Shown piece by piece: positions 32,956 through 41,666 of a DNA stretch of 64,000 nt. Positions within the stretch are counted from its first letter, which is position 1. Each line of letters starts with the position of its first letter. A program made the translations under genes and the position numbers. The stretch is from Buttiauxella izardii. Its GTDB lineage: Bacteria; Pseudomonadota; Gammaproteobacteria; Enterobacterales; Enterobacteriaceae. The notes under the pieces were generated by a model. It worked only from the letters and a program-made list of their open reading frames with translations. It was not told the origin of the DNA and did no database searches. The stretch spans positions 1 through 64,000 of the forward strand of contig NZ_QZWH01000031.1 in the NCBI RefSeq assembly GCF_003601925.1, written 5' to 3'.

Positions 32956-34089
32956 TTTTACTGCGGCGTCCATCCGTTTAATCGCTTCTTCCAGGGTTGC
33001 GGATGTACACCCAAAGTTAATCCGCACGAATTTCTTCTCGCCAAAATCGGCACCTGGCGAGAAGCCCAAACCCGCTTTCTGGAAGAACAGCGTCGGGTTT
33101 TCTACTGGCAATGCGCTGGCATCCACCCAACCGAGATACGTTGCTTGCGGCGAAGTCATCGTCAGTCCCGTCATTGCGTTCACAGCACTCACCAGGCGGT
33201 CGCGATTAGTGCGCAAGTACGGTAAAAGTTGCTGCAACCACGGTTCACCATCACGCCAGGCAGCCGTTGCCGCTGTCAGTGCCAGTACGTCAACGCTCGG
33301 CACGATCCCGTCGCGCACAGTGTTAAAACGCTTACGTAATTGCGGGTCAGGAATAATCGCCAGCGACGCGCCCAGCCCGGCAATATTGAACGTTTTGGAC
33401 GGTGACAACAGAGTGAGGGAGCGTTGTTCGGCATCTGGGCTCAGAGTCGCGAAAGGAATATGTTTCGCATCGGGATCAAGCAACAAATCGCAGTGGATTT
33501 CGTCGGAGCAAACAATCAGATCGTGGCGCTGAGCAAAGGCCAACTGTTGCAGTAACTCTTCGCGGGTATAAATCGTGCCGCCCGGGTTCTGCGGATTACA
33601 CAGCATCAGCAATTTTTCTTTGCCGGTGAATTGGGATTCCAGCGCGGCTAAATCCATCACCCAGCGGTCATTCTCAAGGCGAAGGGGCGCATTAAGTTGT
33701 GGACGCTGAGCAAACACGGAGGATTTCCTGAACGGTGGGTAAATCGGGGTCGGGGCAATCGTCGTTTCATCGGCGGCGGTAAATGCGCGAACGCTTAAAT
33801 TCAGCCCCGCGACAACGCCCGGTAAAAACACAATCCATTCAGGTTGGATCTGCCACTGATAACGGCTGGCCATGCGTTCGACAACAACATCCACTAATTC
33901 TTGTGGACGTCCACCGTAGCCAAAAACGCCATGTTCCACGCGCTGATGAAGTGCTTCGAGAATACAAGGCGGGGAGCGAAAATCCATATCGGCGACCCAC
34001 ATTGGCAAAACGTCATCGCCAAATTTATTCCATTTCGAACTGTCGCTGTGACGACGGTCTAAACGTTCATCAAAATCGAATGTCATCAT
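32944..34089 (-). CDS. PLP-dependent C-S lyase/aminotransferase, MalY/PatB family
   Basis: Fold-type I pyridoxal-phosphate enzyme of 381 residues. It has the MalY/PatB features: LPMWVADMDF at the N-terminus, NPQNPGG, CSDEIHCDL, the Schiff-base lysine in LLSPSKTFNIAGL, and the C-terminal phosphate/carboxylate Arg in FVRINFG. The likely reaction is beta-elimination of cystathionine or cysteine S-conjugates to pyruvate, ammonia and a thiol. It could also be a MalY orthologue with a regulatory role, but it is not next to maltose genes. Either of two adjacent ATG codons could be the start. Confidence 0.85.
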   Translation of the reverse strand: MMTFDFDERLDRRHSDSSKWNKFGDDVLPMWVADMDFRSPPCILEALHQRVEHGVFGYGGRPQELVDVVVERMASRYQWQIQPEWIVFLPGVVAGLNLSVRAFTAADETTIAPTPIYPPFRKSSVFAQRPQLNAPLRLENDRWVMDLAALESQFTGKEKLLMLCNPQNPGGTIYTREELLQQLAFAQRHDLIVCSDEIHCDLLLDPDAKHIPFATLSPDAEQRSLTLLSPSKTFNIAGLGASLAIIPDPQLRKRFNTVRDGIVPSVDVLALTAATAAWRDGEPWLQQLLPYLRTNRDRLVSAVNAMTGLTMTSPQATYLGWVDASALPVENPTLFFQKAGLGFSPGADFGEKKFVRINFGCTSATLEEAIKRMDAAVKSVS

Positions 34090-34176
34090 TGATTACCTTT
34101 TTGTGACTGTCGTTTGAGATTATCATTCTGAACCAGTGGCACAACCGCCAGGCTAAAGATTTTTAAGGAGTAATCA

Positions 34177-34926
34177 ATGCCTTTGCTTGAGATATGTTGT
34201 TATGGAATTGACTGTGCAGTGACAGCACAACTCGCCGGAGCGGACAGAATCGAATTATGTGCGGCACCAAAAGAAGGCGGATTAACCCCGTCTGCGGGCG
34301 TGCTGCGCAAAGTGAAAGAGCGGGTTTCGATTCCCGTGCACCCAATTATTCGCCCGCGCGGTGGGGATTTTTGCTACACCGACGCAGAGTTCGACACCAT
34401 GTTGGCCGATATCGCATTCGTGCGCGAACTCGGGTATCCGGGACTGGTGATCGGCATGTTAGATGGCGAAGGCCATATTGATATGCCGCGCATGAAGCGA
34501 GTGATGGACGAGGCAAAAGGCATGGCGGTGACCTTCCATCGCGCATTTGATATGTGCCAAAACCCTAACCAGGCGCTGGAACAGTTAACTGATTTAGGCG
34601 TCGCGCGCATTCTCACTTCCGGCCAACAGCAAACCGCAGAATTAGGACTTTCATTACTTAGGGAACTAAAACAACATTCCCGTGCTCCAATCATTATGGC
34701 GGGTGCAGGTGTCAGGCTGAGCAACTTAGAAAAGTTTGTCGAAGCGGGTATTGACGAGATGCACAGTTCGGCAGGGCAATCAGTACCTTCGCCGATGCGC
34801 TACCGCAAGGCTGGCGTATCAATGAGTGCTGATGCTGAAGCCGATGAATTTAACCGTTACTGCGTTGATGGCGACGTGGTAGCCGCGATGAAAGCCGTGC
34901 TGGTTGCCAGTCAAAAGGCGACATAA
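34177..34926 (+). CDS. cutC: Copper homeostasis protein CutC
   Basis: TIM-barrel protein of 249 residues, matching E. coli CutC ([15 protein letters not shown]-type segment, [37 protein letters not shown]). It was named for copper tolerance, although the copper role in E. coli has been questioned. Good TAAGGAG upstream. A terminator follows. Confidence 0.92.
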
Positions 34927-35302
34927 CAGACAAACGGTATACAGTTTTAAACCGCGCATCATATTGCCCATGTGATGTAGCTCGTACCAGGCCCCGGCGT
35001 TTTGCTGGGGCTTTTTTTATTCAACTTACGCACAAATAAATTTCATCTCGTGTATTTAATTTATTCAGATTCACTCAATGATATTGAGTAATTATATTGT
35101 GTGTAATTTGTTATTTAATTGTCTATTATATTGCTGCAAGCGGCATGACTGCTGTGTTGTACATTGCGTTACATACGGATACTAATCACTTAAGGAATAA
35201 TGTAGCTGGGTAACTTATGATTAAAATCCCTTTAAAAATATGTTGATAGAGCAAAGTTTCTATTTTTATTTTTAATTAGTCGTATGTGATGTTGTGTTAA
35301 TT
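34927..35302. other. cutC-dlt intergenic region
   Basis: 376 bases without a gene. After the cutC terminator the sequence becomes very AT-rich, unlike the flanks, and should contain the dlt-like operon promoter. I see a small inverted repeat ACTCAAT-GAT-ATTGAGT (about 35074-35090) and an AAGGA followed by ATGTAG near 35193-35205. No known regulator site could be assigned. Confidence 0.6.
34990..35018 (+). terminator. Rho-independent terminator of cutC
   Basis: GCCCCGGC and GCTGGGGC form a stem (with one wobble pair) over a short T-rich loop, followed by seven T. Confidence 0.88.
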
Positions 35303-36442
35303 ATGAAGATCAATAAAACTCTCTTTTTGCATATGTCGATGGCCGTGCTTGCCGCTCTGTTTTTGTCTTTGCCACCCCTTATTGATAGCCAGAAGGTAGA
35401 ATTAAAATTCCAGCCTTTAATAAAAACCATGGAAGGGACGCGTAAAATTCAGGCTGAAAAGATAGCGACCATTTCCCACGCGTTGGATGGTAATGCGATC
35501 TTTTTCCTCGGTGCTTCTGAAGTTGCCACTTCCGAAAATGAGCATTTCGCTGTCTATAATTTCTTCAACAGCAAACTTCATCAACCGACAGTGGCTTATG
35601 GTGACAGCTACGTTGATAACATGACGCAACTGGCCTTGTTGACACGTTTTAAACAAAATCTTTCGCCTAAAACGAAACTGGTTTTGCTGCTGGCCCCTGA
35701 TACTTTTTACTTTAATGGCATTCCGCCGACCATTTTTGCCGATCATTTCCCGGATACTATTTTTAAACCGTTAATGTCGGATAAAACGCTGCATCCCATT
35801 CTGACAAACTATTTAACGCATATTGATCCGCAAGACGTCGACCATTTAACTTTCAGCCAGATGCGCATTTTTGGCTGGCACGGGAATATCGTCTGGCGCG
35901 AAATCAAATATCAGTTCTCTTCATTCTGTGAATTGATCAGAGACTACTTTCTGACACTGCTACACATTCGTCATACCTCCGCACAGCCGTGGCCGTTGTT
36001 GAATCCTGTATGGAAAAATATCGACTGGAATGCGCAGCTCACTCAGGCAGAAATGCTTAACCGTGCTCGTCATGAAAGTGCCGCAACATTATGGATGGAC
36101 AAAGATATATTTGCGGACGTGAAAACAGCCGATGAATGGTATCCCACGCCGCCATCACAGCCGGAAGAGCAGGCATTTGATGACATGATAAAACTGCTGC
36201 ATGAACGCCAGGTCAATGTCGTGGTCATCATCGATCCAGTCAATCCGTGGGCCTTAAAACATACAGAAAAATTCAAAAATACCGACCGCTATATTCAGTC
36301 GGTATTACAAAAATACAACACGCCATATTTTGATATGTATAGCCAGAAATACCAGAACGGATGGAATTGGGACCGCATTCACCCGACCGAATTGGCATGG
36401 GTTGCCATGGACCGTTATATCGCAGAGGCGTTTAATAAATGA
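35303..36442 (+). CDS. dltD: DltD-like periplasmic acyl/aminoacyl transferase
   Basis: DltD homologue of 379 residues: one N-terminal membrane anchor (about 7-26), then a periplasmic SGNH-hydrolase-like domain. The nucleophile is Ser72 in FFLGASEV. The C-terminal Asp357 and His360 in WDRIHPTELAW complete a triad like that of Gram-positive DltD (D-x-x-H). In Gram-positives, DltD transfers D-alanine to teichoic acid on the outer face of the membrane. Here the acceptor must be a different glycan. The ATG is preferred; a GTG lies 3 codons earlier. It is first of five tightly spaced genes and overlaps dltX by 4 bases. Confidence 0.82.
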   Translation: MKINKTLFLHMSMAVLAALFLSLPPLIDSQKVELKFQPLIKTMEGTRKIQAEKIATISHALDGNAIFFLGASEVATSENEHFAVYNFFNSKLHQPTVAYGDSYVDNMTQLALLTRFKQNLSPKTKLVLLLAPDTFYFNGIPPTIFADHFPDTIFKPLMSDKTLHPILTNYLTHIDPQDVDHLTFSQMRIFGWHGNIVWREIKYQFSSFCELIRDYFLTLLHIRHTSAQPWPLLNPVWKNIDWNAQLTQAEMLNRARHESAATLWMDKDIFADVKTADEWYPTPPSQPEEQAFDDMIKLLHERQVNVVVIIDPVNPWALKHTEKFKNTDRYIQSVLQKYNTPYFDMYSQKYQNGWNWDRIHPTELAWVAMDRYIAEAFNK

Positions 36443-36558
36443 AAAAAGCCATCCGACTGTTTTTCCTTTATCTCTTTTTGCTGATAACGATCATTGCCTG
36501 GTCGTCAGTAGACAACAGCATGAATTTAAAGCTGCATTTTGAATATCAGCAGTTTTAA
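36439..36558 (+). CDS. dltX: DltX-like small membrane peptide (39 aa)
   Basis: A 39-residue peptide starting inside the dltD stop (ATGA): two lysines and an arginine, a single hydrophobic helix (about 7-26), and a C-terminal tail LHFEYQQF. Gram-positive DltX is a similarly small one-helix protein ending in FIYNEF. The pattern F-x-Y-x-x-F at the extreme C-terminus is shared. In recent models the DltX tyrosine carries the acyl group between DltB and DltD. Position between dltD and dltB, size, topology and tail all agree. It is too short for most gene callers. Confidence 0.8.
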   Translation: MKKAIRLFFLYLFLLITIIAWSSVDNSMNLKLHFEYQQF

Positions 36559-36569
36559 GGAATGAAATA

Positions 36570-37691
36570 ATGTATACAAGCGCCCCTTTTTTCGCTGTGT
36601 TATTTGCCAGTTCATTACTGTTTGCCGGGTTACACCGCTTACTGGGTAATCGGTTAAGCTACACTTCGCTGTTTTCTTTTTTTGCTCTGTTCGCCGTTTG
36701 GGGCTACGTATTCAAAAGCCAGATAATCGTTCCCATTTTGATGTTTAGTTATTTGTACGGCATTGCTATTTGCAAAGATAAGTCCTGGCTGAAAACCTGG
36801 CAGTCGGTGACCTTAAGTTTATTACCGCTGATTCTGGTGAAATTACATCTGAATAACCACTGGGGAATGATCGGGCTTTCGTTCATGACTTTCCGGGCGG
36901 TGGATGTTTTGCTCTATCGTAATAAAAAGGATTCGCGCAATTTCTTCCAGTATTTTAGTTATCTCTTTTCACCGTTTATTATTCTGGCGGGGCCGATGTA
37001 CCGCTGGAGAAGTTGGGTTCAGGATATCACCCAACCTAACTTCCGCTTAACAACCGCCGTTTTTTTGCAATCCATGGAGCAAATTTTCTATGGCATTGTG
37101 CAAAAATTCCTGTTTGCGATGCTGATTGATAACCTGATTATTAGCCACTGGAGTCATCGTCCTTTCACGCTGACGGTGGGGATTGTGATGTCGCTGGCCT
37201 ACAGTTTTTATCTCTATTTTGATTTTGCGGGTTACAGCAATATGGCGATTGGTGCCGGACGCTTATTTGGCTTGAATATCCCGGCCAACTTTAACTTGCC
37301 TATTCTGGCTAAAAACCCACAGGACTTCTGGCGCAGATTTCATATTAGTTTGTCCGAGTGGCTGCGTGATGTTGTGTTCATGCCGATATACATGAATTTG
37401 ATGAAGAGTGATTTCTTCAGGAACCATAAGGTCACGGCACAGAATATCGGTATTTTTTGCACCTTGTTTTGCATGGGAGCCTGGAATGGACTGGAGTTGA
37501 ATTACGTCGTCAGCGGTGCGCTCTTTGGCGGAATTTCAGTTATGCATAATATGATTCTGTGGTGTGCAAAACGTAGCCAAAAAATAACTTCGTGGTTAAA
37601 TAATCCGTTGATTTCCTTTGCCGGGCGAGTGTTAACCCTGGCAAGCGCTGCGGTTTCTCTTTATATTTTTAGCGGAATGTCTCCTGTATGA
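36570..37691 (+). CDS. dltB: DltB-like MBOAT acyltransferase
   Basis: Membrane-bound O-acyltransferase of 373 residues with about ten membrane segments. Family landmarks are present: YFDFAGYSNMAIGAGRLFG, and FWRRFHISLSEWLRDVVF containing the first conserved His (His258). The second, catalytic His of the GxWHG motif is replaced by Asn306 (GAWNG, codon AAT at 37485). This is unusual and may mean a shifted mechanism or lost activity. It should pass the DltC-bound aminoacyl group across the membrane. AAGGA upstream; overlaps dltA by 4 bases. Confidence 0.82.
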   Translation: MYTSAPFFAVLFASSLLFAGLHRLLGNRLSYTSLFSFFALFAVWGYVFKSQIIVPILMFSYLYGIAICKDKSWLKTWQSVTLSLLPLILVKLHLNNHWGMIGLSFMTFRAVDVLLYRNKKDSRNFFQYFSYLFSPFIILAGPMYRWRSWVQDITQPNFRLTTAVFLQSMEQIFYGIVQKFLFAMLIDNLIISHWSHRPFTLTVGIVMSLAYSFYLYFDFAGYSNMAIGAGRLFGLNIPANFNLPILAKNPQDFWRRFHISLSEWLRDVVFMPIYMNLMKSDFFRNHKVTAQNIGIFCTLFCMGAWNGLELNYVVSGALFGGISVMHNMILWCAKRSQKITSWLNNPLISFAGRVLTLASAAVSLYIFSGMSPV

Positions 37692-39124
37692 TTAATGAAT
37701 CTGAATTACAACAGCTAAATGAATATCTGCGGGCCGTGTTACTTAATCCGCAAAATGCTCAGCAACTGGCTATCAGTGGGAGCGATAATAACCTGACATG
37801 GCAACAACTGAGTTCCGCTGTTGTCGACTGGAACATTCGTTTTTCAGCACTCGATATCGCACCAAACGTTCCGGTAGTGTTGTACGGTCATCAGCAGGCA
37901 GAATTTGCCTCTGCTATTTATAGCTGCTTATTACACAATATCCCTTATATTCCGGTTGATAATATTTACCCGGCAGAGCGCCTGAAAGAGATCTGTGAAT
38001 TAGCCAGCGCGCCCTATTATTATGACGTTGAACAACGCACGTTTAAGTCAACGGGCATACCGGCACAGGCCCTGGAACAGCAGGATTTGGCCTACATCAT
38101 GTTTACTTCCGGCAGTACCGGGAAACCAAAAGGCGTGCAAATTGGCCGTGAAAGCGTGTGGAATTTCATGCAATGGGTACGGGATGATTTTTCCCTGCCA
38201 GAAAATCCGGTATTGATGAACCATGCGGTATTCAGTTTCGATTTATCGTTAATTCCACTATTAGGAAACCTGGCTACCGGCGGGCATATCGTTCTCAATG
38301 CGAAAGAAGATATTGCGGCTGAAAATTGGCTGCAAAATCTGCAACAGAAAAAAGTATCGGTATGGGTTTCAACGCCATCTTTTGCTTACCAGAAGCTTTT
38401 AAATCCGGAATTTCGGGCAGAATTTTTGACCGAACTGAAAGTGTTTGTCTTTATTGGCGAAGTTCTCAGTAAAGCGTTGGTAAAACATCTGCGACGCCTT
38501 TTCCCGGAAGCCAAAATTCTGAACTCTTACGGGCCAACTGAAGCCACGATCGCAACAACCGTTGTCGAAATTAGCGACGAAATAATCAAATCTGAGTGCG
38601 AATTATTACCTATTGGACAGATGATGCCGCAATCTGAAATGGAGATTACTCCAGATGGGGAGTTAATTATCTGGGGTAAAAACGTGATGCGCGGCTATCT
38701 GGGTTTACCAAAGGAAAATGCTGAAAAGCTATTATGGAATGAAACTCAGCAATGGCGTGGCTACAGAACCGGCGATTTAGGTCGCATGATTGACGGTAAT
38801 TTATATTGCCAGGGTCGCAACGACAGCCAAATTAAAATGAACGGCTACCGTATTGAAATTCACGAAATTGAAAATCGCTTGTTGGCGCTTTCGGGAATCA
38901 GCGAAGCGGTAGTGTTACCGCTGACGAAAAAAGATGGTGCGGTTTTACGACTTGCTGCTTTTTGTTCATCAAAACTTTCCGAGAAAGAGATTAAAGCAAA
39001 TCTCAAACAAACTTTACCGTCCTATATGGTGCCATCTCAGATTGTCATCATGGACGCATTACCACTTAATACAAACGGCAAAATTGACCGTAAATTACTC
39101 GATGCGCAGGCTCGTACTTGCTAA
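37688..39124 (+). CDS. dltA: DltA-like amino acid:carrier protein ligase
   Basis: Adenylating enzyme of 478 residues, related to D-alanine:D-alanyl carrier protein ligase. It has the P-loop FTSGSTGKPKG (139-149), amino-group-binding Asp185 (FSFDLS), YGPTEAT (281-287), GYRTGDLG, QIKMNGYRIE, and catalytic Lys465 in NTNGKIDR. In Bacillus DltA a Cys in the FCGE segment shapes the D-alanine pocket; here that position is Ile256 (FIGE), so side-chain or chiral preference may differ. It charges the adjacent DltC in the cytoplasm. Confidence 0.85.
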   Translation: MINESELQQLNEYLRAVLLNPQNAQQLAISGSDNNLTWQQLSSAVVDWNIRFSALDIAPNVPVVLYGHQQAEFASAIYSCLLHNIPYIPVDNIYPAERLKEICELASAPYYYDVEQRTFKSTGIPAQALEQQDLAYIMFTSGSTGKPKGVQIGRESVWNFMQWVRDDFSLPENPVLMNHAVFSFDLSLIPLLGNLATGGHIVLNAKEDIAAENWLQNLQQKKVSVWVSTPSFAYQKLLNPEFRAEFLTELKVFVFIGEVLSKALVKHLRRLFPEAKILNSYGPTEATIATTVVEISDEIIKSECELLPIGQMMPQSEMEITPDGELIIWGKNVMRGYLGLPKENAEKLLWNETQQWRGYRTGDLGRMIDGNLYCQGRNDSQIKMNGYRIEIHEIENRLLALSGISEAVVLPLTKKDGAVLRLAAFCSSKLSEKEIKANLKQTLPSYMVPSQIVIMDALPLNTNGKIDRKLLDAQARTC

Positions 39125-39139
39125 TCCTAAGGATCAAAA

Positions 39140-39358
39140 ATGGAACAGAAAATTTTAGATTTATTTGAAAACGTATTGTCGCGCAAAGTTGAATTTAATG
39201 ATGAGTTGATTGAGTCCGGTATTCTCGATTCGATTACTGCGGTTGATGTCGTATTGGAAGTTCAGGCTGAATTTGGCTGTATGATTCCACCGACGGACGT
39301 TGCAACCGTGTTGAAAACGCCTGCCACCCTGGCAGGGTGGATTGAAGAGAACGCGTAG
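39140..39358 (+). CDS. dltC: DltC-like aminoacyl carrier protein
   Basis: Acyl-carrier-type protein of 72 residues. The phosphopantetheine attachment site is Ser31 in ESGILDSITAVDVVLE, a close match to the DltC pattern of a Leu-Asp-Ser followed by a hydrophobic helix. A strong AAGGA lies 7 bases upstream. It is the last gene of the dlt-like operon. It would carry the amino acid activated by DltA to the DltB tunnel. Confidence 0.85.
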   Translation: MEQKILDLFENVLSRKVEFNDELIESGILDSITAVDVVLEVQAEFGCMIPPTDVATVLKTPATLAGWIEENA

Positions 39359-39382
39359 CTCTCACTGATCGCAAAGTATGTT

Positions 39383-39450
39383 GTAGGTCGTACAGCAGCG
39401 TCATCCGACAAAACTGGCGCAAGCGGTGGAGGACGCTGTCGCTTATCCAC
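39383..39450. repeat. Pair of REP-like palindromes
   Basis: Two units, 39383-39409 (GTAGGTCGTACAGCAGC to CATCCGAC) and 39426-39450 (GTGGAGGACGC to CTTATCCAC), lie between dltC and its terminator. Confidence 0.6.
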
Positions 39451-39474
39451 CCTACAAAACCGGTTAGTCAATCT

Positions 39475-39505
39475 GGAACCCCGGACTCAGTTCCGGGGTT
39501 TTTTG
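39475..39505. terminator. Terminator between dltC and cmoB
   Basis: AACCCCGGA and TTCCGGGGTT form a strong stem with a 5-base loop followed by six T. It closes the dlt-like operon and may also serve the convergent cmoAB. Confidence 0.9.
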
Positions 39506-39511
39506 TGCTTG

Positions 39512-41666
<2,155 letters not shown>

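What the first reader, a model, noticed from the sequence alone, without database searches (positions are those of the whole stretch)
35303..39358. Complete Dlt-like aminoacylation operon (D-X-B-A-C) in a Gram-negative enterobacterium
Five tightly spaced genes encode every part of the Gram-positive teichoic-acid D-alanylation machine: ligase, carrier protein, MBOAT transferase, small DltX-like peptide and DltD. Enterobacteria have no teichoic acid, so the acceptor must be another envelope or periplasmic glycan (LPS, enterobacterial common antigen, capsule, osmoregulated glucan or cellulose are candidates). The operon sits where K-12 has torYZ, behind an unusually AT-rich leader, and has its own terminator. 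Dlt-like loci have been reported in a few Gram-negatives such as Bordetella (dra), but I know of no defined acceptor in this family.
Basis: partly seen in the sequence, partly recalled or inferred. Interest (0 to 1): 0.88.

Follow-up and report, generated by a model that had tools for sequence, protein, structure and literature searches.

The report
Enterobacterial Dlt operon, altered active site
A Buttiauxella bacterium carries a five-gene machine that Gram-positive bacteria use to decorate their wall with an amino acid; such operons are already known in related bacteria, but its membrane enzyme lacks the histidine that papers call invariant in this enzyme class, which makes its chemistry and its target worth testing.

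Summary
Confirmed: five intact, tightly packed genes D-X-B-A-C at 35303-39358 in a Buttiauxella genome, a movable ~4.5 kb islet between cutC and cmoB. The operon type is not new: Dickeya dltBAC/dltD and Bordetella dra are in print, and loss of dltB makes Dickeya sensitive to polymyxin. What I did not find in print in my searches: (1) DltB has Asn306 where the literature says all MBOAT enzymes have a catalytic His; 81 of 81 Gram-negative Dlt loci have Asn, 54 of 54 other MBOAT rows have His; the partner site keeps His258, so the usual Asn/His pair is inverted. (2) Enterobacterial DltA has Ile256 for the Cys that sets D-alanine selectivity (48 of 48), while Photorhabdus/Bordetella-type loci keep Cys (32 of 32), so the amino acid loaded is open. 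(3) A site close to the recalled RstA box lies upstream of dltD in 48 of 48 enterobacterial rows. DltX keeps the FXYXXF acyl-shuttle tyrosine and DltD its Ser-Asp-His triad, supporting the route DltC > DltX-Tyr > DltD-Ser > acceptor. Enterobacterial common antigen and osmoregulated glucans are not shared by all carriers; LPS is the best acceptor guess. Catalysis, amino acid, acceptor and regulation are inferences.

The parts
35160..35182 (+). conserved operator block TACATTGCGTTACATACGGATAC; its first 14 bases fit the recalled RstA box TACATNTNGTTACA with 1 mismatch
   Evidence: 0-2 mismatches to the 14-base pattern upstream of dltD in 48 of 48 rows (window + L069-L115)
35303..36442 (+). dltD: SGNH-type transferase, Ser72/Asp357/His360
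   Evidence: PF04914 7e-23; these residues invariant in 47 of 47 rows
36439..36558 (+). dltX: 39-aa membrane microprotein ending FEYQQF (Tyr36 = acyl-shuttle Tyr)
   Evidence: C-terminal motif conserved; dN/dS 0.03-0.10
36570..37691 (+). dltB: MBOAT; His258 (= H289) kept, Asn306 (= H336), Ser315 (= Y345)
37688..39124 (+). dltA: amino-acid adenylating ligase; Asp185 kept, Ile256 in place of the D-Ala-selecting Cys
39140..39358 (+). dltC: carrier protein, Ser31 in LDSI
   Evidence: PF00550 9e-10; D30/S31 conserved
39475..39502 (+). terminator-like hairpin after dltC, converging with cmoB
   Evidence: exact stem-loop not in the dlt-less stretches L187-L189
35022..39501 (.). approximate extent of the islet relative to dlt-less Buttiauxella
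   Evidence: blastn of window against L187 and L189

Best explanation
A Dlt-like aminoacyl-ester machine. DltA activates a small amino acid (D-alanine most likely, glycine possible) and loads it on the phosphopantetheine of DltC. DltB passes it through the membrane to Tyr36 of DltX; I propose that here His258 on the re-entrant loop is the catalytic base and Asn306 its partner, the reverse of the usual MBOAT pair. DltX hands the group to Ser72 of DltD, which esterifies a periplasmic acceptor, best guess LPS lipid A/core. The gain of amino groups lowers surface charge and so attack by cationic peptides. In enterobacterial carriers RstA probably controls the operon. Shown here: gene content, conserved residues, single clade, movable islet, operator conservation. 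Shown elsewhere: DltX-Tyr and DltD-Ser route in Gram-positives; polymyxin sensitivity of a dltB mutant in Dickeya. Inferred: inverted pair as the catalyst, amino acid, acceptor, RstA control.
For: All parts and motifs. Route in Gram-positives: FXYXXF acyl shuttle and DltD Ser (PMC12148441 passages). H336 aligned to Asn306, H289 to His258; Asn 81 of 81 with two synonymous codons (54 AAC, 27 AAT), His 54 of 54 control rows. The Gram-negative DltBs form one clade beside Firmicute DltB (17 rows, 100/99). Purifying selection, dN/dS 0.03-0.10 in 24 comparisons. Dickeya dltB is 32-fold up in infected aphids and its mutant suffers 99% mortality at 1 ug/ml polymyxin (PMC3544676 section). Operator: 48 of 48 rows, against 3 of 960 shuffles with <=1 mismatch; exact recalled RstA box about 100 bp upstream of asr in K-12; RstA orthologue at 74-82% identity in 8 of 8 enterobacterial type I carriers tested.
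Against: No chemistry on any enterobacterial member was seen. A Dickeya dltD mutant is reported as resistant as wild type (PMC5541007 passage), which a strict DltD-dependent route does not predict. DltB without the His could be a scaffold rather than the catalyst. The Cys-to-Ile change in DltA weakens the D-alanine assignment. No acceptor gene was seen linked to the islet. 46 of 48 operator sites miss the recalled RstA consensus by 1-2 bases, and the consensus itself is recalled. In Dickeya neither polymyxin nor Mg2+ sensing of the two genes studied runs through PhoP (PMC3544676 section), which speaks against a simple PhoPQ-RstBA relay there; from recall, dltB itself was reported independent of PhoP. 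The structure job never returned.
Confidence: 0.58

Rival explanations
1. DltB in this clade is not the chemical catalyst. It is a channel/scaffold that brings the DltC thioester near DltX-Tyr, and another residue (for example invariant His326 or Glu263, or DltX itself) or no general base is used.
For: The MBOAT His is absent in 81 of 81; 24 positions are (nearly) invariant in the clade but rare in controls, among them His326, Glu263, Asp112 and Arg109.
Against: His258 and many residues around the site stay invariant, and the gene is under strong purifying selection.
Confidence: 0.22
2. Ordinary D-alanylation of LPS exactly as in Gram-positives, with the His-to-Asn change neutral because His258 alone was always enough.
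For: All other motifs kept; [quoted passage not shown]
Against: The His is reported required in DltB and PatA (PMC12148441); no enterobacterial amino acid has been identified in what I read; DltA pocket differs.
Confidence: 0.25
3. The enterobacterial branch loads glycine or another small amino acid instead of D-alanine.
For: Ile for Cys269 (48 of 48) and Ile for the Met of the methyl pocket (47 of 47 aligned rows); type II rows have Cys and Tyr/Phe, two Firmicute rows Cys and Met. Glycine on LPS is known in Vibrio (PMC4790380 passage) and in Edwardsiella core (PMC5485987 passages).
Against: Ile might also exclude L-alanine and keep D-alanine; no assay.
Confidence: 0.3
4. A decaying or chance gene set without function.
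For: Some carriers are decayed (L107; G413 and G681).
Against: Intact frames, dN/dS 0.03-0.10, conserved operator, published mutant phenotype in Dickeya.
Confidence: 0.03

Closest known systems
dlt operon of Dickeya dadantii and Pectobacterium (dltD plus dltBAC)
   Same: same genes; Dickeya oryzae and D. undicola loci here have the same order, 71-72% DltB identity, same Asn, Ile and operator
   Different: other genomic site; phenotype known there, none here. D. dadantii itself was not examined
dra locus of Bordetella pertussis and the Bordetella/Achromobacter/Photorhabdus type II loci
   Same: same five parts, same DltB Asn, same DltX tyrosine motif
   Different: order C-D-X-B-A; DltA keeps Cys (32 of 32); no site with fewer than 2 mismatches to the operator. 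B. pertussis itself was not examined
Gram-positive dltXABCD
   Same: DltA, DltC, DltX FXYXXF, DltD triad
   Different: gene order, teichoic acid acceptor, DltB His336/Tyr345 become Asn/Ser, DltA pocket
AlmEFG of Vibrio cholerae (glycine on lipid A)
   Same: ligase plus carrier put an amino acid on a Gram-negative envelope (PMC4790380 passage)
   Different: AlmG is an LPLAT-type transferase, not MBOAT/DltX/DltD (PMC3783018 passage)
PatA/PatB and AlgI-type MBOAT-SGNH systems
   Same: MBOAT plus SGNH, FXYXXF shuttle
   Different: acetyl-CoA donor (PatA), shuttle motif fused to the MBOAT, catalytic His present

Membership tests
Dlt aminoacylation pathway | all five components in one operon | tested here: met
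Dlt aminoacylation pathway | DltX-like microprotein ending in FXYXXF | tested here: met
   FEYQQF in window; Tyr in 80 of 80 loci where dltX could be read (L119 is cut off), first residue Tyr instead of Phe in 8 of them; Pfam gave no match
Dlt aminoacylation pathway | DltD Ser-Asp-His triad | tested here: met
   S72, D357, H360 invariant in 47 of 47 rows
Dlt aminoacylation pathway | DltC carrier serine | tested here: met
   LDSI
MBOAT catalytic pair (DltB) | invariant catalytic His on TM6' (H336) | tested here: not met
   Asn306; 81 of 81 loci Asn, 54 of 54 control rows His
MBOAT catalytic pair (DltB) | second residue Asn, Asp or His on the re-entrant loop (H289) | tested here: met
   His258 in 81 of 81
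Gram-positive Dlt equivalogs (NCBIfam) | score above curated cut-offs for DltA, B, C, D | tested here: not met
   DltD 63.9/150, DltB 204.9/375, DltA 368.9/559.85, DltC 34/68
DltA D-alanine ligase | Cys269-type enantiomer-selecting residue | tested here: not met
   Ile in 48 of 48 enterobacterial type I, Cys in 32 of 32 type II; role of Cys from PMC4176424
Dlt aminoacylation pathway | D-alanine ester on an envelope polymer | not testable with these tools
   needs chemistry
AlmEFG | LPLAT-type transferase AlmG in the operon | tested here: not met
   only MBOAT and DltD transferase families in the operon
Dickeya-type dltDXBAC | gene order D-X-B-A-C and high identity | tested here: met
   L078 and L101 Dickeya

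The most novel reading that the evidence does not exclude
The Gram-negative Dlt clade is the first active MBOAT group that works without the invariant TM6' histidine, using an inverted His (loop) / Asn (TM6') pair to charge a DltX tyrosine; its enterobacterial branch has in addition a re-cut ligase pocket for an amino acid other than D-alanine, put on LPS under RstA control.
Probability: 0.25. Interest if true: 0.8.

Novelty: new variant of a known kind. Interest (0 to 1): 0.58.

Why it matters
MBOAT enzymes, including human HHAT, PORCN, GOAT and DGAT1, are described as sharing one invariant catalytic histidine. A functional bacterial clade that lacks it would show that the pair can be inverted and would give a natural test of which residue is the base. 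It also makes two open questions testable: which amino acid the enterobacterial Dlt machine moves and onto what, and which regulator drives it under envelope stress. Plasmid copies near IS elements that carry the operator show that the module moves between enterobacteria.

Tried and rejected
Acceptor from gene neighbourhood: flanking genes differ by genus and I saw none that recurs across genera as a polymer gene; the ORF caller in that script is crude, above all in GC-rich Achromobacter, and the clusters were judged by eye without a family search. Enterobacterial common antigen as acceptor for the whole clade: WzyE in 9 of 9 enterobacterial carriers but 0 of 6 Alcaligenaceae carriers. Osmoregulated glucans: MdoG in 9 of 15 carriers, absent in Photorhabdus and 5 of 6 Alcaligenaceae. 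Both remain possible for the enterobacterial branch alone. Repeats at the islet ends: none reported at a minimum of 10 bases within either end, none of 8 bases or more shared between 100-base stretches at the two ends. Known RNA family in 34000-40600: none at gathering score. Dlt on E. coli genomes: no near match to the plasmid operon in 20,395 records; distant relatives were not searched there. Distant Dlt in the wider phylum: in 398 genomes only 6 (all of the window's own family) exceed E 1e-200, the next hit is 9.8e-38 and AlgI-like. Sigma-70 promoter scan was no better than shuffles (6 found, 9.7 expected). A structure model of DltB was asked for and did not return; a DltD job was never accepted.

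Weak points of the counts: the 81 Gram-negative DltBs are L069-L148 plus plasmid L060, found with two short peptide patterns from close relatives (94 encoded a relative, the best 80 kept), so more distant Dlt with His could have been missed. L061 (the same plasmid operon), L062 (record start cuts the operon) and the unnamed-genome loci L002-L009 and L032-L059 were left out of that count; alignment A1 (17 of 17 Asn) drew on some of them and on L063. Of the 54 control rows L021 and L151 are the same gene and several others are near-copies. Dickeya dadantii 3937 and B. pertussis, the strains with published phenotypes, are not among the rows. In type II loci 12 of 32 have a 2-mismatch site to the operator pattern; these twelve, all Achromobacter, are on the other strand and share a TGCA-x-xxGGTTACA-like sequence, and were not followed further. 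I found no paper noting the His-to-Asn change in my ten searches of one open-licence library, from which I opened passages of some fifteen papers; subscription papers, including Pandin 2016 and Taneja 2013, could not be read. The RstA box consensus, anything on Pandin 2016 beyond the cited passages, and the GrsA code positions used as labels are recalled.
Full report
Observation. Profile searches assign four of them to the Dlt families, below NCBIfam's curated cut-offs for Gram-positive members; the fifth, a 39-aa membrane peptide, matches no model but ends in FEYQQF, which is the FXYXXF acyl-shuttle motif of DltX (PMC12148441, passages read). The host genus is Buttiauxella: the named loci with 88-90% DltB identity are so titled.

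Distribution. A close DltB is in 9 of 12 genomes of the genus (own included), 38 of 392 of the family at E <= 1e-60 (of the 38, G413 has stops inside and G681 is split) and 6 of 398 sampled across the phylum at E < 1e-200, all of the window's own family. Named carriers include Pectobacterium, Dickeya, Kosakonia, Cedecea, Phytobacter, Enterobacter, Lelliottia, Photorhabdus, Bordetella, Achromobacter, Candidimonas, and plasmids of Klebsiella electrica and Enterobacter cloacae with IS genes close by on both sides. Two layouts exist: type I D-X-B-A-C (L069-L115, plasmid L060) and type II C-D-X-B-A (Photorhabdus and Alcaligenaceae). Among the 47 named type I loci the flanking cutC/cmoB genes of the window are found, within the stretch held, only in the 6 Buttiauxella, and neighbours differ by genus: the operon is a movable islet. 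Two dlt-less Buttiauxella show the empty site, with a small fumD-like gene between cutC and cmoB; a third has other DNA there.

What is in print. dltB of Dickeya dadantii rises 32-fold in infected aphids, and a dltB mutant suffers 99% mortality after an hour in 1 ug/ml polymyxin; the authors call the substrate unknown and name Dickeya, Pectobacterium and Photorhabdus as carriers (PMC3544676: abstract, passages and two sections read). A later paper is cited as proposing LPS modification and as finding a dltD mutant as resistant as wild type (PMC5541007, passages; the cited paper was not held). [quoted passage not shown] So the operon as such is a further member of a known kind.

DltB. Aligned to the solved Streptococcus thermophilus DltB, window Asn306 falls on His336, His258 on His289 and Ser315 on Tyr345 (numbering checked). 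A structure paper describes one invariant His plus a second Asn, Asp or His as the MBOAT pair (PMC12979248, passages); His336, His289 and Tyr345 line the DltB site (PMC11035591, passages); the His is reported required in DltB and PatA (PMC12148441). In 81 of 81 Gram-negative loci the residue is Asn and the partner His is kept; in 54 of 54 control rows, 6 Firmicute DltBs and 48 AlgI-like proteins, it is His. The Asn codon varies synonymously (54 AAC, 27 AAT). Twenty-four positions are (nearly) invariant in the clade but rare in controls. In a 36-row tree the 17 Gram-negative DltBs are one clade (100/99), beside the 6 Firmicute DltBs (95/82 for the join), so one change at the base is the simplest history (one long branch, L160, is flagged there). 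dN/dS within Buttiauxella is 0.03-0.10 for all five genes, 24 comparisons (dS is high in many, so values are rough).

DltA. The D-alanine pocket of B. cereus DltA holds Asp197 for the amino group and Cys269, a main determinant of enantiomer choice (PMC4176424, passages); Leu, Met and Cys form the methyl cavity (PMC8972799, passages). The window keeps Asp and Leu but has Ile for Met and Ile for Cys. Ile at the Cys site is in 48 of 48 type I loci; Cys is in 32 of 32 type II loci and both Firmicute rows; at the Met site type II has Tyr (27) or Phe (5). A tighter pocket could favour D-Ala still, or glycine. This is the reason to call the amino acid open.

Route. DltC serine, DltX tyrosine and the DltD triad (47 of 47 rows) are all kept, so the Gram-positive route carrier thioester to DltX-Tyr to DltD-Ser to acceptor is the best reading. 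The weak step is the MBOAT site; I propose an inverted pair with His258 as base. Against a simple model stands the reported resistant dltD mutant of Dickeya.

Acceptor. I saw no polymer genes that travel with the islet. Among 15 carriers the common-antigen polymerase WzyE is in 9, none of the 6 Alcaligenaceae; MdoG is in 9, missing from Photorhabdus and 5 of 6 Alcaligenaceae. If one acceptor serves the clade, these two are out; LPS, peptidoglycan or a membrane component remain. LPS is favoured because a polymyxin phenotype follows and because glycine on lipid A does this in Vibrio (PMC4790380, passages). This is inference.

Regulation. A block close to TACATNTNGTTACA lies 105-172 bases before dltD in 48 of 48 type I rows, with 0, 1 or 2 mismatches to this recalled RstA box in 2, 41 and 5 rows; letter shuffles reach <= 1 mismatch in 3 of 960 and 2 in 57. 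Away from it the upstream DNA diverges between genera. The plasmid copies carry it; in 32 type II loci the best site has 2, 3, 4 or 5 mismatches in 12, 12, 7 and 1 loci, the twelve with 2 being a shared Achromobacter sequence on the other strand. The same recalled pattern finds an exact site about 100 bp before asr in K-12 and nothing else with <= 1 mismatch in 22 kb. RstA orthologues (74-82%) are in 8 of 8 type I carriers tested; Photorhabdus and four Alcaligenaceae have none at E <= 1e-60 and two Achromobacter have a 50% relative. Against it: in Dickeya the polymyxin and Mg2+ responses of two other genes did not run through PhoP. RstA control is a prediction; related rows are not independent.

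Verdict. I rate it a new variant of a known kind.

Noticed in passing
window 39380-39470: A ~91-base dispersed repeat between dltC and cmoB; 43 matches in the own genome, itself included, most partial or diverged (only 40 of 171 candidates were scored, so a lower bound).
   Followed up: partly
L187, L189 (dlt-less Buttiauxella), L188: A small fumD-like gene (name by recall) lies between cutC and cmoB; it is absent from the window but a like gene lies between dlt and cmoB in four other Buttiauxella. In L188 an integrase-like reading frame, judged by eye, lies next to it, so the spot may attract insertions.
   Followed up: partly
L060, L061, L062: Near-identical dlt operon on Klebsiella electrica and Enterobacter cloacae plasmids near IS1/IS903/IS110 genes, and on a K. 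pneumoniae plasmid record whose start cuts through it, two places.
   Followed up: partly
L107: Insect symbiont Symbiopectobacterium 'North America' has a decayed dlt operon (DltA only in part, DltC not found).
   Followed up: no
L181, L182: dltB genes with no other dlt gene annotated nearby on Ligilactobacillus and Enterococcus plasmids, the first beside a bactofencin-type bacteriocin gene.
   Followed up: no
L082: A genome titled Chryseobacterium sp. 18061 carries an enterobacterial-type dlt locus at 70% DltB identity; probably a mislabelled or mixed assembly.
   Followed up: no
L128-L148, upstream of dltC: Twelve Achromobacter loci share a TGCA-x-xxGGTTACA-like sequence upstream of their type II dlt operon.
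   Followed up: no
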